Below are positions 39,653 through 64,000 of a stretch of 64,000 nucleotides of DNA, piece after piece. Under the pieces are notes generated by a model. That model saw nothing but the letters and a program-made list of their open reading frames with translations, was not told where the DNA came from and did no database searches. The stretch lies in contig NZ_CP059165.1 in NCBI RefSeq assembly GCF_013466425.1, positions 2,046,001-2,110,000 of the forward strand, given 5' to 3'. Every line of letters starts with the position of its first letter. The stretch's first letter is position 1. This stretch comes from Mycobacterium vicinigordonae (GTDB lineage Bacteria > Actinomycetota > Actinomycetes > Mycobacteriales > Mycobacteriaceae). Made by a program: the position numbers and the translations under genes.

Positions 39653-40096
39653 TCAGAATTTCAGGTGGTGGCCCAGATCGCCCACCTGGTCGATGAACAT
39701 GGTGCGGCTGTCGAACCACCAGACGCCGTCGATCCGCTGGAAGGTGTCCTTGTAGTGCCCGGTTACGATCACCTGCAACGGCAGATCCGGCGTGGCTTGG
39801 GTGACGCAGTAGTAGGAGGAGCTGCGCGCGGTGCCGTTGGCCTCGTCGATGTGCAGTTGCACATTGCTGGTGTTGTGGTGGGTCTTGGGGGTGCCGTCCT
39901 CGTAGAGGCGGATGCTCATCTCGTACATGGCGCGCACCCCGGTGGTTCCCCGGAAGATGGTCTCCGGCGGCCCGTCCTCCACCCCGCAGATGCGGCCGTG
40001 CTCGAAAAGAGCGGCGACACCGTCGAGGTCACCGCTGTCGAGGAGTTGCGCATAGGTGTAGATGAGATTGGTGATCGCCGTTGCGCTGTCACTCAT
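39653..40096 (-). CDS. SnoaL-like (NTF2-fold) protein
   Basis: A 147-residue cone-fold protein: AITNLIYTYAQLLDSGDLDGVAALFEHG at the N-terminus, then GVRAMYEMSIRLYEDGTPKTHHNTSNVQLHIDEANGTARSSSYYCVTQ and FQRIDGVWWFDSRTMFIDQVGDL. The D-x-D and T-x-H-x-x-x-N residues are typical of ring-hydroxylating beta/SnoaL_4 proteins, which act as isomerases, dehydratases or accessory subunits. ATG 40096 is the natural start; the longer frame includes part of the 58-bp repeat. It belongs by position to the catabolic island. Confidence 0.8.
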   Translation of the reverse strand: MSDSATAITNLIYTYAQLLDSGDLDGVAALFEHGRICGVEDGPPETIFRGTTGVRAMYEMSIRLYEDGTPKTHHNTSNVQLHIDEANGTARSSSYYCVTQATPDLPLQVIVTGHYKDTFQRIDGVWWFDSRTMFIDQVGDLGHHLKF

Positions 40097-40130
40097 GTCG
40101 ACCACCTTGCCTGGAAGCCAGTTTGCTTCA

Positions 40131-40294
40131 GTGCTGACCCGCTTCGCCCGGACAAGGTCCGCCCTCGCGATCAGCACGGATATCTATAGTGCTGACCCGC
40201 TTCGCCCGGACAAGGTCCGCCCTCGCGATCAGCACGCATATCTATAGTGCTGACCCGCTTCGCCCGGACAAGGTCCGCCCTCGCGATCAGCACG
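40131..40294. repeat. Three tandem 58-bp repeats with internal dyad
   Basis: A 48-bp element beginning gtgctgacccgcttcgcccg and ending gatcagcacg is present three times (40131, 40189, 40247). Copies are separated by a 10-bp spacer tatctata preceded by ga or ca, giving a 58-bp period. Each element has 7-bp inverted ends GTGCTGA/TCAGCAC and an inner CGGACAAGGTCCG-type dyad, so each can fold. It lies upstream of the SnoaL-like gene. The copies are essentially identical, so the array is recent. Confidence 0.9.
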
Positions 40295-40305
40295 GGTCTC
40301 ACGTC

Positions 40306-40386
40306 GTGACGTTACCTTGGACCCCGAGCCGGCTCCGCAACCTGACCGGCAAGCGGGTCATCGTGACCGGCCGGGGAACGATCTAG
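40306..40386 (+). pseudogene. Truncated SDR N-terminus
   Basis: Directly after the 58-bp array a GTG-started frame reads MTLPWTPSRLRNLTGKRVIV, then TGRGTI and stops. L-x-G-K-R-V-I-V-T-G is the first strand of short-chain dehydrogenases, but the glycine-rich loop and the remaining ~250 residues are missing. This is the 5' stub of a gene cut off near 40375, next to the repeat. The following stretch to 40614 contains nothing I can assign. Confidence 0.5.
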
Positions 40387-40614
40387 CGAAGGTGGGCGGG
40401 CATACCGATGGGACTCGCGCGTCCCGACTTCAACGGGCGACCTCCCGCGGGCGCCCAGGGCGCCGTGAAGTCTTCGCCGGCGCGGCCTTTCCACCCTGCG
40501 CCTCTCGGCCGCCCGCCATCGGCAACGTCGCGCAGTTGAATTTTGGCGTCATCAAACGAAACACGTGGCCGCTGTTCAGACGTCCAGACTTTCGTCCGCC
40601 GCTCCAATCACCTC

Positions 40615-41442: not shown

Positions 41443-41716
41443 CGGGTGCTCCCCTCATTTGAGTTCAACTGACTTGGGCGCGGCACCGAACTCGGGGTGC
41501 GTGCGCTATACGAGGGGGATGCTACGCCGAGGCACTTCAATCATACAACTATCTGCCTAATTACACCCGGGTTTGACTCCGAGAACGTTCCGCAATCACC
41601 TCACGGCGAGTCCGCGTGGTGCAACCTCCGGCGAGCCCGATTGGTTGCGTGGCGGCGTCAGCTACGACGCAGAATCGTGCCCGAGGCTCACTAATGCGTG
41701 AACATAGTCTATTGTA
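41443..41716. other. Divergent intergenic region
   Basis: Between the SDR (minus) and the first FadE gene (plus) are 318 bp. I see no gene here. A weak copy of the island dyad (ATTAGGCAGATAGT on the minus strand, 41548-41561) lies on the SDR side, and the strong copy lies at 41717-41730 on the FadE side. Confidence 0.5.
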
Positions 41717-41730: not shown

Positions 41731-41760
41731 GGATTTTGCCGCCGATTGGGGAGGTAGTCG

Positions 41761-42945
41761 GTGCCCTCCGAATATGGCAGATACGCGTCGGACATCGCCG
41801 GCTTCCGCCAGGACTTTCGACGATTCCTTCAGGAGTTGCAATGGGCAGCCGAATGGCGTGCCGCCGCTTTCGATAACGCCGAGGAAGGCTTGGCGTTCGA
41901 TGCGAACGTCCTGGGCCGTCTGTTCGAGGCGGGGTGGTGCCGATATGGATGGCCCCCCTCAGCCGGGGGTTTAGGGGGTAACGAAATACACCGGGCTGTC
42001 TACTACGAAGAACTCGCCAACGCTACCTTGCCGGTCCCGGCCCAACACTGGACCCTAGAGACATTAGGCCCGGCACTGCTTAAGTTCGCCCCGCGCCTTG
42101 CGGCCGAACACCTGCCCAAGTACCTCAGTGGCGCGGAGTGGTGGGGACAAGGGTTCTCGGAACCCGAAGCCGGCAGCGACCTGGCCAACTTGCGCACGCG
42201 CGCGGCCGACGACGGGCACGGGGGGTTCGTCGTAAACGGCCAGAAAATTTGGACGAGCCAGGGTTCGACCGCCGCTCGACTGCTGGTGCTGGCACGCACC
42301 GGAACCGCGGAAAGTCGCCATCGTGGGCTGACGATGTTCATGATCGATGCGAACAGTCCCGGCGTCACGATCCGGCCCATCGCGATTGCGAGCGGACGGC
42401 AGGAACTAGCCGAAGTGTTCTTCGACGACGTGCGCGTCGACACGTCGCGCCTCGTCGGCGACATGGGACAGGGATGGGCTGTGGCGATGTATCTGATGCA
42501 GTTCGAACGGGGGATGTACGGTTATGCGGCCTTGACGAAGACCCTCAGTCGGCTGACTCTACTGCGCAACGAGATGGCCAAGCGCAAAACGTCTGCGGCC
42601 CATCGCCAAAGGTTTGCCCAGACCTATGTTGCGGTCGTAGCGGCGCAGGCCCGGTGCGCCGCCACGGTCCGCAAACTGGCCTCTGGAACACCGATCGGAC
42701 CAGCTACCAGCGTCGACAAGCTGCTGTTCTCCACCGCGGAAAAAGACGCAGGAGATCTGATTCTCGATATCCGGCGCGACTGGATGATCGGTGGTTACGA
42801 GGAGACGGATCGAAATGAGTTGGACACCGCTCGAGCCGAATGGTGGTACTCGCGCGCGGCCACGATCATGGGCGGTACTGCCGAGATTCAGCGCGGGATC
42901 ATCGCCGACCACCTTCTGCGGCTCCCGAAGGAGGTCGGTAAGTGA
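41761..42945 (+). CDS. Acyl-CoA dehydrogenase, catalytic subunit of a FadE pair
   Basis: A 394-residue acyl-CoA dehydrogenase. The middle-domain flavin contacts are GFSEPEAGSDLANLRTRA and GFVVNGQKIWTS. A candidate catalytic base is Glu249 (QFERGMYGY), the helix-G position used by isovaleryl/long-chain types, since the usual YEGT site reads MGGTAEIQRG. GTG 41761 has GGGAGG upstream. It overlaps the next, shorter FadE by 4 bp. Pairs of this kind form alpha2beta2 dehydrogenases in steroid side-chain degradation, so a bulky or branched CoA ester is likely. Confidence 0.88.
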   Translation: MPSEYGRYASDIAGFRQDFRRFLQELQWAAEWRAAAFDNAEEGLAFDANVLGRLFEAGWCRYGWPPSAGGLGGNEIHRAVYYEELANATLPVPAQHWTLETLGPALLKFAPRLAAEHLPKYLSGAEWWGQGFSEPEAGSDLANLRTRAADDGHGGFVVNGQKIWTSQGSTAARLLVLARTGTAESRHRGLTMFMIDANSPGVTIRPIAIASGRQELAEVFFDDVRVDTSRLVGDMGQGWAVAMYLMQFERGMYGYAALTKTLSRLTLLRNEMAKRKTSAAHRQRFAQTYVAVVAAQARCAATVRKLASGTPIGPATSVDKLLFSTAEKDAGDLILDIRRDWMIGGYEETDRNELDTARAEWWYSRAATIMGGTAEIQRGIIADHLLRLPKEVGK

Positions 42946-43913
42946 CCGACGAATCCTGGTTGATGATCGAAGAGGCAGTTTTCAGGGTGTTCGAGGGTCT
43001 TGCCGAGAAGGGCACCGAACACACCGAGATCGGTTCACAGCTGGACGAACTCGGCTGGGCGGAGATCGAAGTGGAATATCCGACAGACGCGTGCGCTCTG
43101 CTCTTCCGTGCGCAGGGCCGGTCATTGGCCCAGACCGATTGCCTGCAGCGCACGTTGCTCAGCGAGCTCGCCGGCCTCATAGACGGCCCGGTTGACGGCA
43201 TCGTGCTGCCCGATCTGGCCGAGGACTGTGAGCCCAGCTTCGACCCCATGAACATCGCGGGCGTGATCGTCGGGCCTCCGCGTGGCCGGGTGGTCGTGCC
43301 TGTTTCAAGCGATGGCGCAGTGTCGCTGGGCGTGATCGATGCCGCGCACCTGCAATCGCGGCGAATGGATACCTTCGACTCCTCCGTCTACTGGACCCGG
43401 GTGACGGGTCGACTGGACGGGCCGAGGGTTGCAGCCGCAACCGAATGGCAGCGTGTAATCGCCGCTGCGCGACGGGCCATCGCTACCGAACTGACCGAGA
43501 TTGCAAGCGCCGCATTGCGCATCGCCGTCGAACACGCACGGGTTCGTATTCAGTTCGGCGTCCCGATCGGGTCCTTTCAGGCTCCCCGTCACGCCCTGGC
43601 GGACGCCTTCGCGCGACTGGAGGGCGCCAAGGCGGTGCTCGACGAGTCCTGGCGCGACGGCGGCCGAATGTCGGCGCAAACCGCCAAGGCGGCGGCCGGC
43701 CGAGCCCACCGCGAGGTGTGCGCGGCAGCCCAACAAGTGTGCGGTGCGATCGGTATCAGTGCCGAACACGACCTGCCACGCTACATCGCCCGTGGGTTTC
43801 AGCTTGATGCGCTCTGTGGCTCGTATCAACAGCTTGAGGCGTCCCTCGCCGATCGGCTGCTCGAGACGAAGGCGACTGCCCGTAGCCTTCCCATGTTTGC
43901 CGCAAGCCAATGA
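42942..43913 (+). CDS. Acyl-CoA dehydrogenase-like, partner (beta) subunit
   Basis: A 323-residue shortened FadE. The C-terminal helical domain is clear (AALRIAVEHARVRIQFGVPIGSFQAPRHALADAFARLEGAK; then AAQQVCGAIGISAEHDLPRY). The N-terminal and middle domains are reduced and lack the usual SEPGAGSD flavin motif and any clear catalytic Glu. This fits the non-catalytic subunit of a heteromeric dehydrogenase that completes FAD binding at the interface. GTG 42942 overlaps the upstream stop (GTGA). Confidence 0.82.
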   Translation: MTDESWLMIEEAVFRVFEGLAEKGTEHTEIGSQLDELGWAEIEVEYPTDACALLFRAQGRSLAQTDCLQRTLLSELAGLIDGPVDGIVLPDLAEDCEPSFDPMNIAGVIVGPPRGRVVVPVSSDGAVSLGVIDAAHLQSRRMDTFDSSVYWTRVTGRLDGPRVAAATEWQRVIAAARRAIATELTEIASAALRIAVEHARVRIQFGVPIGSFQAPRHALADAFARLEGAKAVLDESWRDGGRMSAQTAKAAAGRAHREVCAAAQQVCGAIGISAEHDLPRYIARGFQLDALCGSYQQLEASLADRLLETKATARSLPMFAASQ

Positions 43914-43931: not shown

Positions 43932-45074
43932 TTGCGACGCAACATATTTGATCAGATCCACGACGATTTTCGGGCAACCGCCCGCGAATTCTTCGAGCGG
44001 GAGTGCGCTCCCCACGCTGAGGAATGGGAACGCGACGGCAAGGCCAGCAGGGAGGCCTGGCTTGCCGCGGGAAAGCTCGGGTTGATTGGCTGGGCGCTGC
44101 CGGAGAAGTACGGTGGCCTGGGTATCATCGATTATCGCTTCAACCAAATCGTTTCCGAGGAATTCTTTGCTTCGGGCACCGTGGGGATTGGTCTAGGCGT
44201 CCAAAACGATATTTTGGTGCCATATCTGACCGACCTGACCACCGATGAGCAGAAGGCCCGCTGGCTGCCCAAATTCATCTCCGGGGAATACATCGGCTCG
44301 ATTGCGATGTCCGAACCGGCCGCCGGCTCGGATCTGGCCGGCATCAAGACCAGCGCCAGCGACGAGGGCGACCACTGGGTGGTAAACGGCCAGAAGACGT
44401 TTATCAGTAACGGTCTGTTGTCCTCGCTGGTGCTGACGGCGGTAAAGACGGATCCCTCAGCCGGTCGCCGCGGCCTGAGCTTACTCATGATTGAAGACGG
44501 CATGGCGGGCTTTACCCGAGGCCGTAAACTCGACAAGATCGGTCAGCATTCCGCAGACACTGCTGAACTGTTCTTCGACAACGTTCGGGTACCCAAGGCA
44601 AACCTCGTGGGGGACCTCAATCGAGGCTTCTATCATCTAGTGTCGCACCTCGCCACAGAGCGTCTCGGCGTCGCCTGTTATGCGCTGCCCATGGCGCGCC
44701 GTTCCCTTGAACTCACCAAGGCCTACGCGCTTGAGCGGACCGCATTCGGTCAGCCGATCGGGAAGTTTCAAGTCAATCGCCACTTCATCGCCGAGATGCA
44801 GACCAAACTCGACGCTGCCCAGACCTATCTCGACCAATGTGTGCTGGCCGCCAATGACGGAACCCTGAGCGATGAGGACGCGGCGGGGCTGAAATGGTGG
44901 ACGTCAGAGGTGCAGTGGGAGATCGTCGATCGCTGCTTGCAGATGCACGGCGGCTACGGATACATGAACGAGTACGAGGTTGCGCGACTGTGGCGGGATT
45001 CGCGGGTGCAGCGTCTCTATGCGGGCACGACCGAAATCATGAAAGACTTGATGGGACGGGCGATGGGGTATTGA
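43932..45074 (+). CDS. Acyl-CoA dehydrogenase (long-chain/isovaleryl type)
   Basis: A 380-residue complete FadE. It has the N-terminal helices with LGLIGWALPEKYGGLG, AMSEPAAGSDLAGIKTSA, VVNGQKTFISNG and AFGQPIGKFQVNRHFIAEM. The base is probably Glu243 (ATERLGVACY), the IVD/LCAD position; the other site reads YAGTTEIMK. It starts at TTG 43932 with a good RBS (GAGGAGATCA) 18 bp after the preceding stop, so it joins the same operon. It is a close paralogue of the gene at 53344: same length and same catalytic position. Confidence 0.9.
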   Translation: MRRNIFDQIHDDFRATAREFFERECAPHAEEWERDGKASREAWLAAGKLGLIGWALPEKYGGLGIIDYRFNQIVSEEFFASGTVGIGLGVQNDILVPYLTDLTTDEQKARWLPKFISGEYIGSIAMSEPAAGSDLAGIKTSASDEGDHWVVNGQKTFISNGLLSSLVLTAVKTDPSAGRRGLSLLMIEDGMAGFTRGRKLDKIGQHSADTAELFFDNVRVPKANLVGDLNRGFYHLVSHLATERLGVACYALPMARRSLELTKAYALERTAFGQPIGKFQVNRHFIAEMQTKLDAAQTYLDQCVLAANDGTLSDEDAAGLKWWTSEVQWEIVDRCLQMHGGYGYMNEYEVARLWRDSRVQRLYAGTTEIMKDLMGRAMGY

Positions 45075-45171: not shown

Positions 45172-45912
45172 ATGGAGGTCGAAAGCCTTCGAGAACCGAA
45201 GATGGCAGATCGCGTCGCGGCTGTGCTTCGTAAGATGTTGGTCCGCGGCGAGATCACCGAGGGCAGCATGTTGCCCTCGGAATCCGAGCTGATGGAGCGT
45301 TTCGGGGTATCTCGACCGACGCTGCGCGAGGCATTCCGCGTGCTCGAGTCGGAGTCGTTAATCAAGGTCGAACGCGGCGTGCGCGGGGGGGCGCGGGTCC
45401 ATCGACCGCGGCGGCAGACCTTGGCACGATATGCGGGTCTGATTCTTGAATATGAAGGAGTCACGCTCAAAGACGTCTACGACGCCCGCGTGACGATCGA
45501 GACGCCGATGATCGTGCAGCTTGCACAGAACCACACGGCTGCGATCATCAAAGAACTCGAGCAGATCGTCGAGGACGAGGCGAATCTGCCACCCGGCGAA
45601 GAGGCTGTCGAGCAGCTCACGGATTTTCACGCTGCCATCGCGCGGCTGTGCGGCAACCAGACCTTGCAGATGGTCAGCGAAATGCTGCACCACATTATCG
45701 TCAAGGCCAACAGATCGCTGCAGCCGGCCACAGGAGCACGCGCCGAGCAGGCTGCACGGCGTTCCGCCAAAACTCATCGGCTGGTACTCGACCTGATTAA
45801 AGCCGGCGATGCCGAAGGCGCCAGCGAGTTATGGAGCCGGCACTTGAAGAAGGGCGAGGAGTATGTCCTGACCGGGTCGATGTTGTCCACCGTGGTGGAT
45901 CTGCTCGAATGA
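45172..45912 (+). CDS. FadR-type GntR (FCD) transcriptional regulator
   Basis: A 246-residue regulator. The winged HTH covers about residues 10-75: ADRVAAVLRKMLVRGEITEGSMLPSESELMERFGVSRPTLREAFRVLESESLI. The FCD effector domain (about 90-230) has DVYDARVTIETPMIVQLAQ, LTDFHAAIARLCGNQTL and AKTHRLVLDLIKAGDAEGASELWSRHL, with the Asp/His residues that often bind metal. Effectors of this family are often acyl-CoAs or organic acids. It is the only regulator seen in the island, so it is the best candidate to bind the repeated dyad. ATG 45172 chosen; GGAAGGA lies upstream. Confidence 0.88.
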   Translation: MEVESLREPKMADRVAAVLRKMLVRGEITEGSMLPSESELMERFGVSRPTLREAFRVLESESLIKVERGVRGGARVHRPRRQTLARYAGLILEYEGVTLKDVYDARVTIETPMIVQLAQNHTAAIIKELEQIVEDEANLPPGEEAVEQLTDFHAAIARLCGNQTLQMVSEMLHHIIVKANRSLQPATGARAEQAARRSAKTHRLVLDLIKAGDAEGASELWSRHLKKGEEYVLTGSMLSTVVDLLE

Positions 45913-46532: not shown

Positions 46533-47345
46533 TCAAGATCGGTTCGAACGAGCGCGAAATGCGGCTACCCTGTCCTTGAATTCGGGGGTCGAGAACGATG
46601 TGTACTCCGCCGCCAACGCGTACTCCAACACGCCGAGCGCAGCCCGCGAAAGGTGCATGTTCATCGCCCTCTTGGTCGATTGCACAGCCTGCGAGGGCAG
46701 GCTCGCCAACCGCTCGCCAAGCGCAAGACCTTCCTCCAGAACACGGTCGTCGGACACCACCCGCGTCGCCAGGCCCACATCCTTGGCGATCTGAGCGGTA
46801 ATCTGCTCACCGAGCAGCACGAACTCCTTGGCCTTAATCATGCCCACCAGTAACGGCATCATCGCTGCACCGCCGTCACCTGCGGTCAGACCAACTGCTA
46901 CATGAGGATCGGCAAGATAGCTGCCTTCGCCCATCACCAACAGGTCCGACAGCAGAGCTATGGAACACCCCAGTCCGACGGCGGGGCCGTTGACGGCCGA
47001 CACGAGCGGTTTGCTGAAGTTGATGATTTCCAGAAAGACGGTTCGCGCGTCGGCGATCTGCTTGGCGCGCGCGTCGGGATCCTCGATCAGCCGGCTGAAC
47101 ATCACCATGTCGCCGCCGGCGGAGAAGGCCTTTCCGGCGCCGGTGATCACGACGGCACGGACATCCTCGTCGTTCTCGAGCACGCGCCAGATCCCGGCGA
47201 ACGCCTCGTGGACGTCCTCGTTGACGGCGTTTAACGTCTCAGGGCGATTGATCCGGATCAGATGCGCGCCGCCGATCTTTTCGACCAGCAGCGACGGCGC
47301 GAAAGCCTCATATCCCGCCAGTGTCGCAACTTCTGATGTGGTCAT
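46533..47345 (-). CDS. Enoyl-CoA hydratase/isomerase family protein
   Basis: A 270-residue crotonase-fold enzyme. It has INRPETLNAVNEDVHEAF, the oxyanion-hole segments GAGKAFSAGGDM and AVNGPAVGLGCSIALLSDL, and then YLADPHVAVGLTAGDGGAAMMP. The usual second catalytic Glu (P-E) is replaced by P-H, and an Asp occurs in GDGG. Crotonases with this pattern use Asp and often act on unusual substrates. It lies upstream-to-downstream behind the thiolase unit (9 bp gap), as part of a three-gene minus-strand operon. Confidence 0.88.
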   Translation of the reverse strand: MTTSEVATLAGYEAFAPSLLVEKIGGAHLIRINRPETLNAVNEDVHEAFAGIWRVLENDEDVRAVVITGAGKAFSAGGDMVMFSRLIEDPDARAKQIADARTVFLEIINFSKPLVSAVNGPAVGLGCSIALLSDLLVMGEGSYLADPHVAVGLTAGDGGAAMMPLLVGMIKAKEFVLLGEQITAQIAKDVGLATRVVSDDRVLEEGLALGERLASLPSQAVQSTKRAMNMHLSRAALGVLEYALAAEYTSFSTPEFKDRVAAFRARSNRS

Positions 47346-47354: not shown

Positions 47355-48515
47355 CTAGTTCCTCTCACTCGACAGTATGGTGATCGCTGACACAGCCGTC
47401 GGTCCACCGATGTTGTGTGCCAATGCTATTCGTGCCCCGTCGACTTGGTTCTCCGCTTCGCCTCGCAGCTGGTTGAACAGTTCGTAGCACTGCGCTACCC
47501 CGGTGGCTCCCGGTGGATGCCCTTTGGCCTTCAGACCTCCACTCGGGTTGATGGGTATAGATCCACCGACATAATTGTCTCGCGCCTCAACGATTTTGTA
47601 CGCCTCGAACCGGTTGGCGAAACCGAGATCTTCGTAGCTGATCATCTCGACTCCAGTGAAGCAGTCGTGCACCTCGGCGACATCCACATCGCGGGGGGTG
47701 AGCCCAGCCATCGCGAAAGCCGCCTTGGCGGCACGGACGGTCGGCGGGAAGGTCGTCATGTCCGACTTGTGCTGGTGCATCACACGATCCATGCCAAGAC
47801 CGACGCCGCGCACCCATACCGGGCGATCGGTGTAGTGGTCCACGACATCCTCGGCGGCCAAGATCACCGCCGCGGCGCCATCACTTTGCGGTGTGCAGTC
47901 GTAGAGACCGAAAGGCTCCACCACGGTGGGCGCCGCCAACGCCTGCTCGACAGTGATCTCGTAGCGCAACTGAGCATAGGGGTTCTTCAGCGCATGGAAG
48001 TGGTTCTTGACGGCCACCATCGCCAGATGTTCCTTGGTGGCGGGTGATTCATGGAGGTAGCGGGTCACATGCAGGGCGAAGTTGGCCGGTGCGACCAAAC
48101 CCAGGGGGTAGTCCCATGCGTTGTCGCGAGTCATTGCTGCCCATTCCCAGAACGTGGTGTTGGTCGCGGTCTCGCGAACCTTGTCGGCACCGACCACCAA
48201 AACGACGTCGTACATGCCGGACGCGATTGCCATCACCCCACCTCGGATCGCGTCATTGCCTGTCGCGCAGGCATTTTCGACCCGCGTCACGGGAATGCCG
48301 GTGAGGTCCAGCGTGTCTGCGAGGATCCCGGAGGGAAACCCGTCGGTGGTCGACAGCTCACCGAACCACGCCGCCTGGATGTCGGCCCTCTCGATGCCCT
48401 TGTCGACGTGGGTGACGGTATTCGCATAGGCCATCGGCAGCAGATCCTTGATGCCGTGGCCGAAATGTTCACCGAACGGGGTCATCCCCGCGCCGACGAT
48501 TGCGACGTTTCTCAT
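47355..48515 (-). CDS. SCP2-type thiolase / acyl-CoA retro-aldolase-like protein
   Basis: A 386-residue thiolase-fold protein. The nucleophile Cys83 lies in VENACATGNDAIRGG. Other signatures are CTPQSDGAAAVILA, EVHDCFTGVEMISYEDLG and INPSGGLKAKGHPPGATG. The final catalytic region reads LAHNIGGPT, with His but no Cys, as in lipid-transfer-protein type thiolases rather than classic beta-ketothiolases. Its coupling by a 4-bp overlap to an OB-fold protein resembles Ltp2-ChsH2-type aldolases, which release propionyl units from steroid side chains. Thiolytic or retro-aldol activity remain alternatives. Confidence 0.85.
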   Translation of the reverse strand: MRNVAIVGAGMTPFGEHFGHGIKDLLPMAYANTVTHVDKGIERADIQAAWFGELSTTDGFPSGILADTLDLTGIPVTRVENACATGNDAIRGGVMAIASGMYDVVLVVGADKVRETATNTTFWEWAAMTRDNAWDYPLGLVAPANFALHVTRYLHESPATKEHLAMVAVKNHFHALKNPYAQLRYEITVEQALAAPTVVEPFGLYDCTPQSDGAAAVILAAEDVVDHYTDRPVWVRGVGLGMDRVMHQHKSDMTTFPPTVRAAKAAFAMAGLTPRDVDVAEVHDCFTGVEMISYEDLGFANRFEAYKIVEARDNYVGGSIPINPSGGLKAKGHPPGATGVAQCYELFNQLRGEAENQVDGARIALAHNIGGPTAVSAITILSSERN

Positions 48516-54914: not shown

Positions 54915-56099
54915 CTATTTGTGGAGAAGCAGTGGAAGCCTCGCGAGGCCGAATGTATTCGCCGGCCAGTTAATGCAGGGTACGAAACCGGGCTCCACAC
55001 TGAAGTCCGGCACTCGTGCCAGCCATTCATTGACGATGAGCGTGAGTTCCATGCGGGCGAGGTGCGAACCCAGACACCGGTGTGGGCCTCCACCGAAACC
55101 CCAGTGCTTGTGCACCTTTCCGTCCATGACGATATGGTTGGCCGACGTATCGTCACTTTCGTCGCGGTTGATGCCGCCCATGCACAGCTTGACAAGGGAT
55201 CCCGCCGGAACGGTCATGCCGCCGACCTGCACTTCACGTGTGGTAGCGCGCACCACAAGCGGGGCGGGGGGTTCCAGTCGCACCATTTCTTCCACGAAAA
55301 GTCGTGTGTCCTGGGGATGTGTGCGCAAATGCGTGCATATCTCGCGATTGCGCGCGAGCTCTAGCAGAGCCATCCCTAGGGCGCCGGTGACAGTGTCGAG
55401 GCCTGCCAGGATGAAGAGGAAGGCCAATCCCAGGGCTTCGTTGTCGTCGAGGGGATCGGCGCCCCCGAGCAAGCTGGACAACAGGTCATCGCGTGGATTG
55501 GCCCGGTGGTCGGCGATGGACTCAGTCAGGTACGCGAAAAGCTCCAAGGCCGGCGTCAGGTCGGCGTTTGCCATATCCGGAATTTCCGACAGGTGGATAA
55601 CCGCGTCTTTCCAGGCGATGAGGCGATCGCGGTCAGCCAAAGGAAGACCGAACATGGTTAGGAAAACCTGCGAAGGGTAGGGCATGGCAAGTTCGGAGAT
55701 CACCTCGCAGCGGTCATCCGCGCACGCTCGTTTGATGATGTCAATTGCCTGCTGTTGCAGGGACGGCAGGATCTTCGACAGCGTTCCTGGGCTGAAGAAG
55801 GGCTGCAGAATCTTGCGGTAGCGGGTGTGTTCGGGAGGGTCGTAGGACAACGGAAGCAAGGGCAACGGGCTGCCAAGCACATCGTAGGCCTTCTTCGACG
55901 AGAAGACCTCCGGGTTGCGCAAGGCTTCGAGAACATCCTCACGACGAGTGAAGTAGTACCAGGGATCCTCGTATACGACCGGTCCGGCGTCCCTGAGTGC
56001 CGCCCATCCAACGGCGCGATCCTCGGCGAACGGCAGCTCGGGCCATGAGATGTGGGGGATCGAGCTTGTGTTGGCGCTGGTCTGGTTAACGCTGGTCAT
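54915..56099 (-). CDS. Cytochrome P450
   Basis: A 394-residue soluble bacterial P450. The I-helix oxygen motif is FLFILAGLDTVTGA. The E-x-x-R is EEMVRLEPPAPLVVR. The heme-binding loop is FGGGPHRCLGSHLAR with the thiolate Cys342. The N-terminal region has SYDPPEHTRYRKILQPFFSP. No ferredoxin or reductase gene is beside it, so its electron partner lies elsewhere. It probably hydroxylates the pathway substrate, giving an alcohol for the SDR and ALDH. ATG 56099 was chosen over an earlier one because it fits the family N-terminus. CYP family number cannot be assigned by eye. Confidence 0.92.
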   Translation of the reverse strand: MTSVNQTSANTSSIPHISWPELPFAEDRAVGWAALRDAGPVVYEDPWYYFTRREDVLEALRNPEVFSSKKAYDVLGSPLPLLPLSYDPPEHTRYRKILQPFFSPGTLSKILPSLQQQAIDIIKRACADDRCEVISELAMPYPSQVFLTMFGLPLADRDRLIAWKDAVIHLSEIPDMANADLTPALELFAYLTESIADHRANPRDDLLSSLLGGADPLDDNEALGLAFLFILAGLDTVTGALGMALLELARNREICTHLRTHPQDTRLFVEEMVRLEPPAPLVVRATTREVQVGGMTVPAGSLVKLCMGGINRDESDDTSANHIVMDGKVHKHWGFGGGPHRCLGSHLARMELTLIVNEWLARVPDFSVEPGFVPCINWPANTFGLARLPLLLHK

Positions 56100-56662: not shown

Positions 56663-56712
56663 TATAAGAGGCTACAATGCGTCACGAATCATTTTTGCGA
56701 GAGGGAGTAGCC

Positions 56713-58209
56713 ATGACGGCTTCATCGGTCGCTGCCACCACGGTCCAATTCAATCCCGAGACCAGGTTGTACATCGACGGTCGATTACGCGATGCGGCGA
56801 GCGGTCGCACCGCTGAGAACATCAATCCGGCCACTGAGGAGGTCCTCGGTCTGGCGACGGACGCGGGGGCAGAGGACATGGACGAGGCGATCGCTGCGGC
56901 CCGCCGTGCCTTCGATACCACCGACTGGTCGACGAACCCCGACTTCCGCCAGCACTGTCTGATGCAGTTGCACGATGCGCTGCAGCAGGATCGCGAGGAT
57001 ATGCGTGCCGAGCTCATCGCAGAGGTGGGGGCCCCACTCGGCTTCACCTACTTGGCACAGCTGGACTGGCCGCTGGCCGATGCGCTGCGTTGGCCCGCAG
57101 AGTACATCTCGCAATTCGGTTGGGAACGACAGCTCGATGTCGACGACAAGTTTGGGGTGCCCTACCATCGCGCGGTCGTCAAAGAGCCGATGGGTGTGGT
57201 CGGCGCGATCACTCCGTGGAACGTTCCGTTCGAGATCATCGCTAATAAGGTTGGACAGATCCTCGCCACCGGCAACACGATGGTCCTCAAGCCAGCGATG
57301 GAGACGCCGTGGAACGCGTTGCGTTGGGGCCGGGTCATCGCCGAGAGGACCGACATTCCCCGGGGTGTGGTCAACATCGTTCCGGCTTCGGACAACAGCG
57401 TCGCGCAGCGGCTGCTCACCGACTCGCGGGTGGACATGATTTCGTTCACCGGCTCCACGGTGGTCGGCGAACTGATTCAGCGGTTGTCCGCCTCGACGAT
57501 GAAGCGCAACCTACTCGAACTCGGCGGCAAGTCGGCCTTCCTGCTGCTCGACGACGCGGACCTGAATGCGACGGTGCCCGGCTGCATCGCCGCATTGATG
57601 AATGCCGGTCAGGGATGCGCACTGACGACCAGGATGCTGGTGCCCAGCCAGTTCTATGAGACGGCCGTCGAGATCGCGACTGCCTCGTTCTCCTCAGTGT
57701 CTTGCGGTGATCCCGGCGACCCCGCCAACCTCTACGGTCCGGTCATCTCAGCCAAGCAGTATGACCGAGTGATGGGTTACCTGCAGATCGCGAAGGAAGA
57801 GGGTGCACGGATCACCACCGGCGGCGGCAGACCCAAAGGGCTCGACAGGGGCTACTTCATCGCCCCCACGGTGCTCGCCGACGTGGCACCGCAGCACCGC
57901 GTTTTCCAGGAGGAGATCTTCGGGCCGGTGCTGACCGTAACCCCGTACGACGGCGGCGACGACGGGGCTGTCGAGATGGCGAACAACTCCATGTACGGGC
58001 TGGCCGGCACCGTCATGGGTTCTACAGACCGGGCGATGGCCGTCGCGCGCCGTATCCGCGCCGGGTCGATCAACGTCAATTCCGCCTTGTACTACGGCGC
58101 GGACGCGCCCTTCGGGGGCTACAAGATGAGCGGCATCGGCAGGCAAAACGGCGTCGAAGGATTCGAACAGCACCTGCAGACCAAAGTGATCGCGTACCCC
58201 GTCGACTGA
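56713..58209 (+). CDS. Aldehyde dehydrogenase
   Basis: A 498-residue NAD(P)-dependent ALDH. It has the cofactor region GAITPWNVPFEIIANKVGQILATGNTMVLKPA, FTGSTVVGELI, the general base Glu269 (LLELGGKSA) and nucleophile Cys302 (NAGQGCALTTR). The end is PFGGYKMSGIGRQNGVEGFEQHLQTK. It would oxidise an aldehyde made by P450/SDR action to an acid for CoA activation. ATG 56713 follows GAGGGAG; an ATG at 56677 gives a poorer N-terminus. It is the first gene of a plus-strand operon with the CaiB and VOC genes. Confidence 0.93.
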   Translation: MTASSVAATTVQFNPETRLYIDGRLRDAASGRTAENINPATEEVLGLATDAGAEDMDEAIAAARRAFDTTDWSTNPDFRQHCLMQLHDALQQDREDMRAELIAEVGAPLGFTYLAQLDWPLADALRWPAEYISQFGWERQLDVDDKFGVPYHRAVVKEPMGVVGAITPWNVPFEIIANKVGQILATGNTMVLKPAMETPWNALRWGRVIAERTDIPRGVVNIVPASDNSVAQRLLTDSRVDMISFTGSTVVGELIQRLSASTMKRNLLELGGKSAFLLLDDADLNATVPGCIAALMNAGQGCALTTRMLVPSQFYETAVEIATASFSSVSCGDPGDPANLYGPVISAKQYDRVMGYLQIAKEEGARITTGGGRPKGLDRGYFIAPTVLADVAPQHRVFQEEIFGPVLTVTPYDGGDDGAVEMANNSMYGLAGTVMGSTDRAMAVARRIRAGSINVNSALYYGADAPFGGYKMSGIGRQNGVEGFEQHLQTKVIAYPVD

Positions 58210-58272: not shown

Positions 58273-59484
58273 ATGACCGACATTCTCAGTGGGATACGCG
58301 TCGTCGAGTTGGCGTCGTGGACCTTCGTTCCCTCCGCCGGTGCTGTGCTTGCGGACTGGGGAGCCGACGTCATCAAGATCGAGCACCCCGAAACCGGTGA
58401 TCCCCAGCGCGGCCTGATCAGCTCAGGCGTCGTCGCCAGCGGGGGCGGCGTCAACCACTTCATCGAGCAACCAAATCGCGGCAAGCGCAGCATCGGTATC
58501 GATACGTCGGGCCCCGACGGACTTGAGCTACTGATGAGGCTGATCGAGACTGCCGACGTGTTCCTGACCAACTTGTTGCCCGATTCTCGTCGGCGTATGG
58601 GCGTGGACGTCGAACAGGTGCGGACCCGAAACCCCAGGATCATCTATGCGCGCGGGCACGGCTACGGAGCCAAGGGGGATCTGGCTTCCCAGGGCGGGTT
58701 CGACCTCGCCGCCTACTGGGCGCGGGGCGGGATCGCTGACGCGTATGCCGTCGGTGACGGTTCCTACCCGCCGGTCCAGCGGCCCGCGTTCGGCGACGTC
58801 TACGGAGGACTGGCGATAGCAGGCGGTATCGCAGCGGCACTGGTAAAGCGCGAACGCACCGGCGAGACTTCGGTGGTCGACGTCTCGCTTCTGAGCTCCG
58901 CCATTTGGCAACTGGGGATGGATATCGTGGGTTCAGGCGTCACAGGCCGGGATATCCCGAAGTTCAACTTGGAAGAAATGCCGAATCCGGTTGCCAGCGT
59001 TTACAAGACCCGAGACGGCCGGTTTATTGCTTTGGTGCTCTTGCAGTCAGACCGGTTCTGGTCGGAGTTCTGCACGCGCCTGGGCAGACCCGAGCTGATT
59101 GACGATGAGCGCTTCGCCAACGCCGTCGCGCGGTTCGGCAATCGCAAAGAGTGTATTGCAAAGCTGCGAGCCGCCTTTGAGTCCGAAGATCTAAGCCACT
59201 GGGAGAAGGCCCTCGCCGGCTTTGGCGGAGTGTGGGACGTGGTGCGCACCGCCCACGAGGTGAACAACGACCCGCAGGCCCTCGCCAACGGATACCTGCC
59301 ACGCGTGACCGACACAAACAACAACGAGTTCGCGGTGGCGGCGAGCCCCGTCCAGTTCGATGAGACTCCATTGAGATTGACGTGTGCACCTAACCACGGC
59401 GAGCATACTGACGCGCTACTCACCGAATTGGGGTTTAGCGAGGACGAGATCATCGAGTTCAAGATTAATTCTGTGGTCCTGTGA
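58273..59484 (+). CDS. CaiB/BaiF family (class III) CoA-transferase
   Basis: A 403-residue class III CoA-transferase. It begins DILSGIRVVELASWTFVPSAGAVLADWGADVIKIEHPETGDPQRG and continues FIEQPNRGKRSIGID. The nucleophilic Asp175 lies in RPAFGDVYGGLAIAGGIAAAL. Such enzymes move CoA between carboxylates, often succinyl-CoA or an acyl product being the donor. Here it is well placed to activate the acid from the preceding ALDH. ATG 58273; the stop overlaps the VOC gene start by 1 base. Confidence 0.92.
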   Translation: MTDILSGIRVVELASWTFVPSAGAVLADWGADVIKIEHPETGDPQRGLISSGVVASGGGVNHFIEQPNRGKRSIGIDTSGPDGLELLMRLIETADVFLTNLLPDSRRRMGVDVEQVRTRNPRIIYARGHGYGAKGDLASQGGFDLAAYWARGGIADAYAVGDGSYPPVQRPAFGDVYGGLAIAGGIAAALVKRERTGETSVVDVSLLSSAIWQLGMDIVGSGVTGRDIPKFNLEEMPNPVASVYKTRDGRFIALVLLQSDRFWSEFCTRLGRPELIDDERFANAVARFGNRKECIAKLRAAFESEDLSHWEKALAGFGGVWDVVRTAHEVNNDPQALANGYLPRVTDTNNNEFAVAASPVQFDETPLRLTCAPNHGEHTDALLTELGFSEDEIIEFKINSVVL

Positions 59485-60461: not shown

Positions 60462-61373
60462 CTAGGTCGGCAGCAAGGGGCCGGCCAGACCGCGGGGAAG
60501 TGTGTCCCAAAGCCAGCTGACCGCTTGGCCCACCTCAGAGTACTGAAGGTGATTCTGATCTTTGGCATGGTAGCGCTGCGGAGCCTCGGAGAACCCAACG
60601 ATACGGCTCAGAGAGCTGCCGTTGACCCGCAAGATCTGTCCCGTCAGCCACGCCGACTCGGCAGACTGGAGCCAAGCCACGACTGCGGAGCTACGAGCAG
60701 GATCCAATGCCGGGTCGGCGGCCTTGTCAGCGCCGAAGAAGCCTTCGCTGATGCGCGTGACCGCCAACGGCGAGATCGCGTTGGCAGACACGTTATAGCG
60801 CCGCATCTCCATTGCTGTTACCAGCGTCAGGTTGGCGATGGCGGCCTTGGCGGCTCCGTAGGCGCTTTGGCCGACATTGCCCCAAAGACCTGCGCCGGAA
60901 ACGGTGTTGACGATGCGGGCGTCGACGGGGTTGCCCTGCTTGGCTTGTGAGCGCCAGTAGTCGCAGGCGTGTTTGGTGACGGCGAACGTGCCCTTGAGAT
61001 GCACGGCCGTGACCGCATCGAAATCGGCCTCCGTCGCGCTGGTGATCATCGCGTCTCGCACGATTCCTGCGTTGTTGACCACGCCGGTCAGCGTGCCGAA
61101 CTGCCTGACGGCGGTGCTAACCATGTCGGCGGCGTCATCCCAGGATGCCACTGAGCCCGTGTGCGCGACGGCCCTGCCGCCCGCTGCTTCGATTTCCGAG
61201 ACAACTTGTGCCGCAGGGCCATCCGCGTTATCGCTCGCGGTGCCGTCACGGCTGACGCCGGGATCATTCACCACCACCGCGGCACCGTGCGCGGCCAGCT
61301 CCAGACAGTGGGCACGGCCGATGCCACGCCCGCCGCCGGTGACGAGCACAACCCGTCCCTCGAGTGACCCCAT
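60462..61373 (-). CDS. SDR family 3-hydroxyacyl-CoA dehydrogenase-like protein
   Basis: A 303-residue SDR resembling the dehydrogenase part of HSD17B4/multifunctional enzyme 2. The loop is LVTGGGRGIGRAHCLELAAHGAAVVVND, then VVNNAGIVRDAMI and catalytic Ser/Tyr/Lys in TVSGAGLWGNVGQSAYGAAKAAI. The C-terminal ~60 residues extend beyond the SDR core. It probably oxidises a hydroxyacyl-CoA after hydration. It lies 14 bp downstream of the CoA-transferase gene, with which it forms an operon starting at the FadE (63713). Confidence 0.87.
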   Translation of the reverse strand: MGSLEGRVVLVTGGGRGIGRAHCLELAAHGAAVVVNDPGVSRDGTASDNADGPAAQVVSEIEAAGGRAVAHTGSVASWDDAADMVSTAVRQFGTLTGVVNNAGIVRDAMITSATEADFDAVTAVHLKGTFAVTKHACDYWRSQAKQGNPVDARIVNTVSGAGLWGNVGQSAYGAAKAAIANLTLVTAMEMRRYNVSANAISPLAVTRISEGFFGADKAADPALDPARSSAVVAWLQSAESAWLTGQILRVNGSSLSRIVGFSEAPQRYHAKDQNHLQYSEVGQAVSWLWDTLPRGLAGPLLPT

Positions 61374-61387
61374 GAAACTTCCTTTCC

Positions 61388-62560
61388 TCAGGTGAAAAGC
61401 TTGGTGATGAGCCCGCGGCGCTGTGCCCAGTCGGCGCCGCGCAGGTCGACGTGGCCGGATTCGGTGACGATCATGTCCACGTCGTAAGCGGGTGTTGATG
61501 CTGGACGGCTGAGATGATCGACCAACGGCGAACGGCCGTTGATGACCGACGGAACCGCGATGATCGAGAGGCCGCCTCGGCTCAGCCGCGCACCGGTGCA
61601 GTAGTCCGGATGTCCACCGATCCCGCCGACCACCTTCTCGCCGATGCCTTCGACGTTGATCTGCCCGAGCGGGTCGATCTCGATTGCGGTGTTCACCGCG
61701 ATCAGTGGTTGACCGCGCGACAGACGAGTGATGTCGTGGGTGTAGTCGATGCCGCGCAGAATCTTGCGACCATCGGCCCAGTCGTACAGCGCTTCGGTGC
61801 CCAGGAGATAGGTTGCCGACGGCGCGCCCACGAGCAGCCCCCGCCGGTCCAATTCGACCACCTCATCAGTCAGCAGGCCGGTATCGATACCCAGCGGAAC
61901 GCGGGCGCGCCGCAGCAGCGCAGTGCCTAACTGGCCCGGGCCATACTGGAGTCGGGCGCCCCGTGGGATCAAACGCAACACCTCATCGGCGAGAGCGAAG
62001 TGAATCGGCTCAGGTTCTTTTTGGGGAACCTCGGCCAACCCCTCGGTCGTCGCGCCGAGCAGGCGAACTTGGTCGACGTGTTCGTGAGCGCTGGCGGCGG
62101 GTGCGTTGGCGTCGATGACGCCGAAAACCTCAGCGCCGCAACTAATCGCGGAACTCTGCCAAGATACTTCGCTACTGAACTGCAACCCACGGGGTCGTCG
62201 AACCAGCCGGGTGATCAGGATGTCAGGGCGAAGTACGTCGGTCAGAAGGGCGGGGATCGCCGATAGCCGTGTTGGGACAAACCGTGCCGACGAGCTGCGC
62301 AGCGTATCGCGCAAACCCCACCCCGGCATCAGCGCCACGACGTCAGCGAACGCGTCGGCGTCCAGGCCGGCGATTGAGGTGGGAAGCCAGCCGATGACTA
62401 GGCGCACCGACCCCACCTCACGGGCCGCTGCGCTCAATGCGGCGCCCACCGAAGTGCCATCATCGAGGCAGCCGAGCGCGCCGACACCGTCGCCCAACGC
62501 GACAGTCATTCCGGGACGGAGAAGAGCGCGCAGCGCGCGCGAAGCGCTCGTCGAGGTCAA
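61388..62560 (-). CDS. Acetyl-CoA hydrolase/4-hydroxybutyrate CoA-transferase family protein
   Basis: A protein of about 390 residues in the class I CoA-transferase/acetyl-CoA hydrolase family. The C-terminal domain is clear: ARLQYGPGQLGTALLRRARVPLGIDTGLLTDEVVELDRRGLL, then YLLGTEALYDWADGRKI and AVNTAIEIDPLGQINVEGIG with GGIGG. The N-terminal domain is weaker and there is no obvious Glu nucleophile context. The start is unclear: TTG at 62560 lies 8 bp after the FadE stop; a frame from 62629 would overlap FadE by 62 bp. It may transfer or release CoA on the pathway product. Confidence 0.75.
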   Translation of the reverse strand: MTSTSASRALRALLRPGMTVALGDGVGALGCLDDGTSVGAALSAAAREVGSVRLVIGWLPTSIAGLDADAFADVVALMPGWGLRDTLRSSSARFVPTRLSAIPALLTDVLRPDILITRLVRRPRGLQFSSEVSWQSSAISCGAEVFGVIDANAPAASAHEHVDQVRLLGATTEGLAEVPQKEPEPIHFALADEVLRLIPRGARLQYGPGQLGTALLRRARVPLGIDTGLLTDEVVELDRRGLLVGAPSATYLLGTEALYDWADGRKILRGIDYTHDITRLSRGQPLIAVNTAIEIDPLGQINVEGIGEKVVGGIGGHPDYCTGARLSRGGLSIIAVPSVINGRSPLVDHLSRPASTPAYDVDMIVTESGHVDLRGADWAQRRGLITKLFT

Positions 62561-62567
62561 TCTGCCG

Positions 62568-63713
62568 TCACCGAGGTTCTTTGGGCAGGCCAAGCACACG
62601 CTCGCCCAAGATGTTGCGCTGGATTTCACTGGTGCCGCCGAGGATGGTCTGCGCCCGACCCACCAACATGTGATGCACGAGTTCGTTGTCGGCCGGATCG
62701 GCGCAGGCGTCGGTGCCCAGCACTTCGGTCGCCATATCGCCCAGGTCGCGGTCGGTTTCCGAACTCATCAGCTTGAGTACCGAAAAGGCAGGAGACGTGA
62801 GGTCGCCGGAATCGATGGCTCGCAGCCAGGTGAACCGCAAAAGCCACATCCGCGCCCACAGCTTCGTCATCGACCGCGACAGGGCAGGATCGAGTAGATC
62901 ATGGTCACGGGCGGCATCGATCAAGCGCCTGTGGAGGCGAAACATCCCGACAGCCTGCGAACCGAGGGTCAGGCGTTCACGGCCTAGCGTCACCAGCGCC
63001 AGAGTCCAGCCCTGCCCGACCTCCCCGATCAACGCGTCGTCGGTCAATTCGGCACCGTCGAAGAACACTTCGTTGAATTTGCTCTCGCCGTCCATCTGGG
63101 TGAGTGGGCGCACCGTGACCCCGGGTGCATCCATTGGCACCACGAACATCGACAACCCGCGATGCTTGTCGGGACCGGTACGTGCCAACAGCAGCCCGTA
63201 GCGGGCCGGCACCGCCGCAGAACTCCACACTTTCTGACCGTCGACGCGCCAGCCTCGGTCGGTGCGCTGCGCGCGGGTGCGCACAGCGGCTAGATCCGAT
63301 CCCGCCCCCGGTTCGGAGAACAGCTGACACCACACATCGTCACCCAACCGGATTGGCTCCAGATAACGGGATTTCTGCTCGTCGCTTCCGAACTTGATCA
63401 GCACGGGACCAACGAGGTCGGGGCCGGTGATGTTGACTTGTCGCGGAACACCGGCACGCGCGCACTCCTCGGCGAACACGGCCTGGAACGCCACTGTCGC
63501 GTCAGCGCCGCCGACGTCGTGTGGCCAGTGCAGACATGTGTAGCCGTGCTCGGCGAGGTGGCGGTGCCACTGGCGGCCGGCACTGACGTCGGCGGCCGTC
63601 GGCGTGGGTCCGTAGTTGCGTAGCCCCGCCGGCTTGGGAGCGTTGTCCAGGAAAGCTCTGATCTCAAGGCGAGAGGCCTCGATGTCCTCGGCGACTGAAG
63701 TGGCTGCGGACAT
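62568..63713 (-). CDS. Acyl-CoA dehydrogenase
   Basis: A 381-residue complete FadE. It has GYTCLHWPHDVGGADATVAF at the N-terminus, LFSEPGAGSDLAAVRTRAQR, WRVDGQKVWSSAAVPARYG and the base Glu246 (GRERLTLGSQ). The end is ILGGTSEIQRNILGERVLGLPKEPR. ATG 63713 is preceded by AGGAG (the longer ORF from 63731 is rejected). It is the first complete gene of the minus-strand operon continuing to the CoA-transferase and SDR, and the partial FadE upstream of it may be its partner. Confidence 0.9.
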   Translation of the reverse strand: MSAATSVAEDIEASRLEIRAFLDNAPKPAGLRNYGPTPTAADVSAGRQWHRHLAEHGYTCLHWPHDVGGADATVAFQAVFAEECARAGVPRQVNITGPDLVGPVLIKFGSDEQKSRYLEPIRLGDDVWCQLFSEPGAGSDLAAVRTRAQRTDRGWRVDGQKVWSSAAVPARYGLLLARTGPDKHRGLSMFVVPMDAPGVTVRPLTQMDGESKFNEVFFDGAELTDDALIGEVGQGWTLALVTLGRERLTLGSQAVGMFRLHRRLIDAARDHDLLDPALSRSMTKLWARMWLLRFTWLRAIDSGDLTSPAFSVLKLMSSETDRDLGDMATEVLGTDACADPADNELVHHMLVGRAQTILGGTSEIQRNILGERVLGLPKEPR

Positions 63714-63867
63714 AGTTACTCCTCTGCACAACGGGCGCGATTTGCCCGTCGAGATCGTCGGGGCATTTCTCTGAGATCGACTAAATGCCGGGGAAATAAG
63801 CCGGAAACGCGACGTCTGGCCTGCCGATTGGCCGGCTGCGGATCGTGCTTGGCCGGGTGCACCGTCG

Positions 63868-64000
63868 TCACGTCAGCTCGGCCACCGGCGTTAGGCGGTC
63901 CCAGTGTTGGGCCGGCGTGCCGAACAAGACTTCGTCCGTGCGAGCGCGACGCAGATACAGGTGCGCCGAATCCTCCCAGGTGAATCCAATGCCGCCGTGG
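63868..64000 (-). CDS. Acyl-CoA dehydrogenase, C-terminal end (partial)
   Basis: The last 43 codons of a FadE that continues beyond the window: HGGIGFTWEDSAHLYLRRAR, TDEVLFGTPAQHWDRLTPVA and ELT, then TGA. H-G-G-I-G-F-T is the family C-terminal FAD-contacting loop. It is oriented like the FadE at 63713 and 154 bp upstream of it, so the two may be the partners of a third FadE pair, and the island extends to the right. Confidence 0.85.
   Translation of the reverse strand, partial: HGGIGFTWEDSAHLYLRRARTDEVLFGTPAQHWDRLTPVAELT

What the first reader, a model, noticed from the sequence alone, without database searches (positions are those of the whole stretch)
39653..64000. Accessory catabolic island with P450, ALDH, CoA-transferases, seven-plus FadE and an aldolase-like pair
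The genes supply the consecutive reactions for taking an inert hydrocarbon or cyclic alcohol into central metabolism: hydroxylation (P450), alcohol oxidation (mycofactocin-type SDR), aldehyde oxidation (ALDH), CoA loading (CaiB), dehydrogenation (several FadE), hydration (crotonase), second oxidation (SDR) and cleavage (SCP2 thiolase/OB-fold). Heteromeric FadE pairs and the OB-fold partner point to bulky, branched or ring CoA esters rather than plain fatty acids. No ring-opening steroid genes (kstD, hsaC type) are in this window, so it is not the standard cholesterol cluster. The substrate is unknown.
Basis: partly seen in the sequence, partly recalled or inferred. Interest (0 to 1): 0.75.

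Follow-up and report, generated by a model that had tools for sequence, protein, structure and literature searches.

The report
Mycobacterial ring-acid degradation gene cluster
This stretch is the larger part of a patchily distributed gene cluster of mycobacteria that probably breaks down a bulky ring-shaped lipid acid, using steroid-pathway-like enzymes that include an altered CoA-transferase which may open the ring; its natural food molecule is still unknown.

Summary
The gene content is real. Window 39653-64000 encodes a mycofactocin-type SDR, seven acyl-CoA dehydrogenases (an eighth starts at the edge), a CYP143-family P450, ALDH, CaiB, a crotonase, two further SDRs, an SCP2 thiolase with an OB-fold partner, a VOC protein and a CoA-transferase-fold protein. 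It belongs to a cluster that runs at least 14 kb past the window and recurs, rearranged, in a minority of mycobacteria (19 of 148 genomes carry both marker genes). Standard cholesterol-pathway markers lie elsewhere (5.76-5.78 Mb).

Two readings change. (1) The 'aldolase-like pair' keeps the thiolase motifs and lacks the Ltp2/Sal motif; its partner is a Cys-free HMG-CoA-synthase-like/OB fusion. Most likely it is a thiolase for bulky substrates. (2) The second 'CoA-transferase' (61388-62509) has Gly at the catalytic Glu in all 120 best database matches (window included), the substitution reported for IpdAB of steroid ring opening, and sits beside an IpdE-like dehydrogenase pair. I propose a hydrolytic ring-opening enzyme in a pathway for an alicyclic acid. 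Substrate and activity are untested; this is a new variant of a known kind.

The parts
39653..40177 (-). SnoaL-like protein, left edge of island
   Evidence: PF13577 61.1 bits
40615..41442 (-). mycofactocin-coupled SDR
   Evidence: TIGR03971 329.8 bits, above cut-off 300
41761..42945 (+). FadE a1, presumed large subunit of heteromeric acyl-CoA dehydrogenase pair a
   Evidence: Pfam ACAD N+M+C; best solved relatives 6wy9/6wy8 and 4x28
42942..43913 (+). FadE a2, presumed small subunit; only the C-terminal ACAD domain is recognised
   Evidence: PF00441; best NCBIfam IpdE2 84 bits, below cut-off 450
43932..45074 (+). FadE a3, complete single-chain type acyl-CoA dehydrogenase
   Evidence: Pfam N+M+C
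45172..45912 (+). GntR/FCD regulator
   Evidence: PF00392, PF07729; start
46533..47345 (-). crotonase (enoyl-CoA hydratase/isomerase family)
   Evidence: PF00378
47355..48515 (-). SCP2-type thiolase with intact Cys, HDCF and GHP motifs
48512..49765 (-). OB-fold partner: HMG-CoA-synthase-like region + zinc-ribbon remnant without Cys + OB_ChsH2_C
49876..50730 (+). SDR (PRK08278 type)
   Evidence: NF006133 327.7 bits, above cut-off 250
50734..51879 (+). FadE b1, presumed large subunit of heteromeric pair b
51876..52997 (+). FadE b2, presumed small subunit
   Evidence: C-terminal ACAD domains only
53344..54486 (+). FadE b3, single-chain type; not found in the nine relatives' regions
54915..56099 (-). 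Cytochrome P450, CYP143 family (56.4% to the M. tuberculosis CYP143 chain)
56677..58209 (+). aldehyde dehydrogenase, Rv0768-like
   Evidence: TIGR04284 614.7 bits, below cut-off 775
58273..59484 (+). CaiB-type (family III) CoA-transferase
   Evidence: PF02515 302 bits
59481..60446 (+). VOC (glyoxalase-superfamily) protein; a second VOC domain is suspected from length, not recognised by Pfam
   Evidence: PF00903 29.6 bits, residues 17-156; no credible solved relative
60462..61373 (-). SDR (PRK07791 type)
   Evidence: NF005861 330.6 bits, below cut-off 373; beside the CoA-transferase-fold gene in 21 of 25 copies
61388..62509 (-). CoA-transferase-fold protein, catalytic Glu replaced by Gly211; proposed ring-opening hydrolase
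62568..63713 (-). FadE c, presumed large subunit of heteromeric pair c
   Evidence: Pfam N+M+C; NCBIfam pimC_large 192.8 bits, below cut-off 624; gene
63868..64000 (-). C-terminal end of the eighth FadE (presumed small subunit, IpdE2-like, 181.5 bits), which continues past the window
   Evidence: L009:1868-3028

Best explanation
The island is the larger part of a dedicated pathway for the degradation of a bulky, probably alicyclic (terpenoid- or steroid-fragment-like) lipid acid. Shown from sequence: gene content, conservation as a cluster, intact thiolase motifs, altered CoA-transferase active site, CoA-transferase fold of the model. Inferred: the P450 hydroxylates an inert position; the mycofactocin SDR and the ALDH oxidise the alcohol to an acid; CaiB and acyl-CoA synthetases just downstream load CoA; heteromeric dehydrogenase pairs (a, b, c) desaturate bulky CoA esters; the crotonase, and outside the window a MaoC protein, hydrate; SDRs oxidise; the SCP2 thiolase, held by its HMG-CoA-synthase-like/OB partner, cleaves the beta-keto product thiolytically. 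The CoA-transferase-fold protein, having lost the covalent glutamate, hydrolyses a cyclic beta-keto acyl-CoA and so opens the ring, in the manner of IpdAB, next to an IpdE1/IpdE2-like dehydrogenase pair.
Against: No activity, expression or substrate data. IpdAB did not appear among the sequence or fold rows, so the likeness rests on one residue, a shared superfamily and gene company; loss of Glu could also mean a transferase that works without the covalent step, or a scaffold. Other window genes are less constant in the nine regions: CaiB, VOC, GntR 7; ALDH, crotonase, SDR 49876 6; FadE b1 5, b2 4; mft-SDR 1; P450, FadE b3 and SnoaL 0 (several regions end before the P450 end of the cluster). 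The window P450's position in the CYP143 tree is unsure. Of the VOC's His/Glu/His/Glu set in the window protein, one His is missing in all four relatives aligned. The Mce importer downstream is only 23-29% like the one beside the cluster in G117.
Confidence: 0.55

Rival explanations
1. It is an accessory steroid or bile-acid module: it handles a steroid side chain or a modified steroid nucleus, feeding products into the standard cholesterol pathway encoded elsewhere in the genome.
For: Steroid-type FadE relatives; an OB_ChsH2_C protein, a MaoC protein and SCP2-fold proteins without full thiolase motifs just downstream; Mce-type importers near the cluster; cholesterol-pathway markers elsewhere in the genome.
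Against: None of the island's proteins that I scanned reaches a steroid-pathway NCBIfam cut-off. The in-window thiolase is not of Ltp2/Sal type (PMC12329534 passages).
Confidence: 0.25
2. It is a pathway for branched-chain or very-long-chain aliphatic lipids (methyl-branched fatty acids, isoprenoid alkanes), with no ring involved; the CoA-transferase-fold protein is a plain acyl-CoA hydrolase or salvage enzyme.
For: P450, SDR, ALDH and CoA loading fit omega-oxidation of alkyl chains; SCP2 thiolases also serve branched substrates (general knowledge).
Against: FadE pairs related to ring/steroid enzymes and an active-site substitution like that of IpdAB, conserved in every homologue examined.
Confidence: 0.15
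3. There is no single pathway: several unrelated lipid operons, common in mycobacteria, lie side by side by chance.
For: The genome holds 28 thiolase-like, 63 P450 and 90 acyl-CoA-dehydrogenase-like matches, some genes of the last set in two pieces, so chance neighbourhoods of such genes are expected.
Against: Orthologous blocks stay together across genomes, in changed order and away from the window's left-hand neighbours; both markers in 19 genomes of 20 and 23.
Confidence: 0.05

Closest known systems
KstR2-type HIP (last steroid rings) module: IpdE1-IpdE2, IpdF, EchA20, IpdAB, FadA6
   Same: A CoA-transferase-superfamily protein with Gly in place of the catalytic Glu, next to an IpdE2-like FadE pair and an SDR (PMC5380842 passages).
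   Different: One gene of the 4-hydroxybutyrate-CoA-transferase type; its FadE partner scores far below the IpdE2 cut-off (181.5 vs 450 bits); the over-cut-off IpdE2 of the genome lies at 5.76 Mb.
BbsAB benzoylsuccinyl-CoA thiolase and the archaeal thiolase/HMG-CoA synthase/DUF35 complex
   Same: Thiolase with intact motifs next to an OB-fold partner; the BbsA model matches 34 of 34 partners at E<=0.1 (best 2.2e-10, window only 0.0079); thiolase hits 6esq at 223 bits.
   Different: All below the BbsA/BbsB cut-offs; the partner carries an HMG-CoA-synthase-like region and, in the window, has lost the zinc-ribbon cysteines; substrate unknown.
ChsH1-ChsH2-Ltp2 and Shy-Sal steroid side-chain aldolases
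   Same: SCP2-fold enzyme with an OB_ChsH2_C partner.
   Different: In-window enzyme has Cys/HDCF/GHP rather than YDHF or YDCY (PMC12329534 passages). d10061 outside the window (YDGF, no Cys) is nearer to that type.
CYP143A1 of the ESX-5 locus (orphan P450)
   Same: Same family: 56.4% identity.
   Different: Different neighbourhood; the window genome carries a second CYP143 (71.9% to the M. tuberculosis chain) beside EccB, an FtsK/SpoIIIE protein and a PPE gene.
Pimeloyl-CoA dehydrogenase PimC/PimD
   Same: PimC is the best NCBIfam model for FadE c, a1 and b1.
   Different: All far below the equivalog cut-off (125-193 vs 624 bits).

Membership tests
Ltp2/Sal steroid retro-aldolase | YDHF (Ltp2) or YDCY (Sal) motif in place of the thiolase HDCF | tested here: not met
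   47355-48515 has HDCF, 39 of 39 rows; motif definition from PMC12329534 passages
SCP2-type thiolase | nucleophilic Cys, HDCF and GHP motifs | tested here: met
   39/39, 39/39 and 38/39 rows, one gap; aligned to solved thiolases
SCP2-type thiolase | thiolytic activity | not testable with these tools
   no assay
Family I CoA-transferase (4-hydroxybutyrate type) | fold | tested here: met
Family I CoA-transferase (4-hydroxybutyrate type) | catalytic Glu forming the CoA intermediate | tested here: not met
   Gly211 instead; 120 of 120 matches and 9 of 9 rows, window included in both
IpdAB ring hydrolase | Gly at the catalytic-Glu position of a type I CoA-transferase | tested here: met
   IpdAB statement from PMC5380842 passages
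IpdAB ring hydrolase | IpdA/IpdB sequence family in two chains | tested here: inconclusive
   single gene, PF13336; the five NCBIfam matches are butyrate, succinate or citrate-lyase type; IpdAB was not compared directly
IpdAB ring hydrolase | hydrolysis of a cyclic beta-keto acyl-CoA | not testable with these tools
   no assay
Standard cholesterol/steroid cluster | HsaA and IpdE2 equivalogs in the cluster | tested here: not met
   over-cut-off hits lie at 5.78 and 5.76 Mb only; other marker genes were not searched
CYP143 P450 family | more than 40% identity to a named CYP143 (naming rule recalled) | tested here: met
   56.4% over 390 residues
Mycofactocin-coupled SDR subfamily 1 | NCBIfam cut-off | tested here: met
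   329.8 vs 300 bits
Extradiol ring-cleavage dioxygenase (for the VOC protein) | detectable relation to solved extradiol enzymes | tested here: inconclusive
   no credible solved relative; no NCBIfam match

The most novel reading that the evidence does not exclude
The 61388-62509 family is a second, independently evolved ring-opening hydrolase: a single-gene CoA-transferase fold that lost its glutamate, as IpdAB did, and opens an alicyclic beta-keto acyl-CoA in an undescribed mycobacterial pathway that also uses a pseudo-HMG-CoA-synthase/OB-assisted thiolase, with a CYP143-type P450 as recurrent entry enzyme.
Probability: 0.3. Interest if true: 0.7.

Novelty: new variant of a known kind. Interest (0 to 1): 0.5.

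Why it matters
If right, it adds a ring-opening step for saturated rings that needs no oxygenase, suggests that CoA-transferases turned into ring hydrolases more than once, and gives a patchily distributed mycobacterial gene set a concrete, testable role. It also gives the orphan CYP143 family a catabolic context in many mycobacteria, beyond the ESX-5 locus where it is usually discussed.

Tried and rejected
Aldolase reading of 47355-49765: rejected on motifs. Extradiol ring cleavage by the VOC protein: no support. Ferredoxin beside the window P450: a motif scan of the window found none; one ferredoxin lies at L009:16397-16591. A regular-expression test for the catalytic Glu of the FadEs was uninformative: it found no YEGT-type motif in any of the seven window FadEs, single-chain ones included. 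The first CYP143 tree (33 rows) had wrongly read rows (L133, L138, L146); for (31 rows) I re-read the ORFs, dropped four rows (L032, L130, L139, L146) and added two (L129, L157); the window P450's grouping with P450s from another operon fell from 97/95 to 90/80, i.e. unsure. IpdAB was not among the rows printed, which shows only part of the fold space.

Literature: ten searches listed no paper whose title or abstract start describes this cluster or its substrate; only open-licence PMC papers were searched. Passages read: PMC9868604 (plus its section 5), PMC6469627, PMC8025370, PMC12329534, PMC5380842; all others were seen as listings with abstract starts. PMC8025370 lists cyp143 and mce3 genes with nearby locus tags in hypermutated regions of M. 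intracellulare; I did not check whether this is the same cluster. From memory, not from a call: the catalytic role of residue 238 in 3gk7, the HMG-CoA synthase Cys motif, P450 naming thresholds, the identities of 6wy8/6wy9 and 4x28, and the term C ring for the IpdAB substrate.
Full report
WHAT IS THERE. The window is G000:C1:2046001-2110000 of a 6.27-Mb single-contig genome; named relatives of its OB-fold protein are mostly Mycobacterium and Mycolicibacterium. Gene calling with a codon model trained on clear genes gives 21 calls from 39653 to the window edge, plus the end of one more. Pfam/NCBIfam assign 20 of the 21: SnoaL, mycofactocin-type SDR, FadE a1/a2/a3, GntR, crotonase, SCP2 thiolase, OB-fold protein, SDR, FadE b1/b2/b3, P450, ALDH, CaiB, VOC, SDR, a CoA-transferase-fold protein and FadE c; the ORF at 56269-56646 has no Pfam match.

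THE CLUSTER IS LARGER THAN THE WINDOW. Just past the edge lie an IpdE2-like FadE, an acyl-CoA synthetase, an SCP2-fold protein (d4744), an amidohydrolase, a TetR regulator, an OB_ChsH2_C protein, MaoC, a further SCP2-fold protein (d10061), a second synthetase and a ferredoxin. An Mce operon (two MlaE permeases, MlaD and Mce4_CUP1 matches) starts 22.6 kb beyond the window. Mce genes also lie within the flank of the cluster in two named relatives tested with Pfam (L025; L026) and, by BLAST similarity only, in G117, where they are just 23-29% like those of the window genome. The link is suggestive.

IT IS A CONSERVED UNIT IN PART OF THE GENUS. A search with the OB-fold protein returned 39 named loci; 10-kb flanks, some cut by contig ends, show the same blocks, with a CYP143-like P450 (62-66% to the window's) in 19 of 39. 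With the CoA-transferase-fold protein, 23 of 148 genus genomes match at E<=1e-60. The OB-fold protein matches 57 of 148 at E<=1e-80, of which 20 genomes (22 copies) are at 57% identity or more and the other rows at 52% or less (I set the line after seeing this gap). 19 genomes have both, 1 only the OB-fold protein, 4 only the other, 124 neither (Fisher p 4e-19, not corrected for kinship). In 18 of the 22 copies both lie on one contig, 4-73 kb apart. 25 of the 26 CoA-transferase-fold matches were available as loci; in 21 of 25 the gene lies with FadE c and the SDR. Nine 40-kb regions, chosen from few-contig genomes, show the arrangement: ten proteins are found in 8 or 9 of 9, the other window genes in 0 to 7 (figures under evidence against). 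None of the six window genes just left of the island was recognised in these regions or in the 39 loci, so the cluster occupies different places. Loci from Gordonia, a Streptosporangiaceae and an Acidimicrobiia bacterium (L036, L048, L050) keep the OB-fold protein, thiolase and CoA-transferase-fold protein but show no P450 of this type or ALDH within their flanks, which suggests a CoA-ester core with peripheral oxidation added.

NOT THE STANDARD CHOLESTEROL CLUSTER. The only over-cut-off IpdE2 (561 bits) and HsaA (699 bits) matches of the genome lie at 5.76 and 5.78 Mb.

THE THIOLASE/OB PAIR. The thiolase has the nucleophilic Cys motif in 39 of 39 rows, HDCF in 39 of 39 and GHP in 38 of 39 with one gap (L031, cut by its contig end, is not counted). 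Steroid aldolases carry YDHF (Ltp2) or YDCY (Sal) instead (PMC12329534 passages). So this is most likely a thiolase. Its partner has an OB_ChsH2_C domain (34 of 34 relatives) and weakly matches the BbsA model (34 of 34 at E<=0.1, best 2.2e-10, window 0.0079). The rest is weakly like HMG-CoA synthase (14 of 34 at E<=0.1). Over most of its length it aligns with 485-499-aa proteins of other actinobacteria that match the HMG-CoA synthase model at 200 bits or so, below its cut-off (0 of 198 genomes over it); hhalign probability 90.4, E 1.4e-6, on shallow profiles. One of these (L159) has a zf-ChsH2 zinc ribbon and a sub-cut-off OB match; the distant orthologue L048 keeps the zinc ribbon too. In the window protein the zinc cysteines are gone (FPPR kept) and there is no Cys at all; of the 119 other listed homologues 90 also have none (the best 120 of 934 hits, window included, were examined; L050 was split by my gene calling and left out of the 39 rows). 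Just outside the window, d10061 has no Cys and YDGF (2 of 2 rows) and is the better aldolase candidate; d4744 has Cys but QDTD and GEP (5 of 5 rows) and stays unclear.

THE P450. It is a CYP143-family enzyme, 56.4% to the M. tuberculosis chain. The genome has a second CYP143 (71.9%) next to EccB, an FtsK/SpoIIIE protein and a PPE gene, i.e. in an ESX locus. CYP143A1 is described as an orphan of the ESX-5 locus (PMC6469627, PMC9868604; passages). In relatives a CYP143 lies within 22 kb of the OB-fold gene in 13 of 22 copies, window included, 12 of them within 10 kb; in some others the contigs are broken. The window P450 sits elsewhere in the cluster than those, and its tree position is unsure, so it may be a separate recruitment.

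VERDICT. A real, conserved, accessory catabolic cluster; most likely for a bulky alicyclic acid, with a plausible hydrolytic ring-opening enzyme. Substrate unknown. New variant of a known kind.

Noticed in passing
window:40130-40303: Three tandem copies of a 58-nt unit (98% and 91% to the first) overlap the start of the SnoaL gene and its upstream region.
   Followed up: no
L149-L153, L158: CYP143-family P450s also occur in a third setting: near a CbbQ/NirQ-type AAA protein, a 510-aa VWA-domain protein and small proteins without family assignment; tested with Pfam in L150 only.
   Followed up: partly
L094:8976-9278 and L009:6130-6435: A conserved protein of about 100 aa (69-74% to the window genome's copy in 7 of 9 regions), without Pfam or NCBIfam match, lies next to an acyl-CoA-synthetase-like gene in relatives.
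   Followed up: no
43 of the 148 genus genomes, e.g. G018, G085, G140: A second group of OB-fold long proteins (47-52% to the window's) exists in many mycobacteria, pointing to a related paralogous pathway; some matches run across a TGA.
   Followed up: no
L009:6507-7748 and 14868-16070: Two PF04909 amidohydrolases belong to the cluster neighbourhood (found in 5 and 6 of 9 regions); their step is unknown.
   Followed up: no
L013:14041-16161: A 706-aa protein with a tannase/feruloyl-esterase match and weak PKD matches lies inside the cluster of one relative.
   Followed up: no
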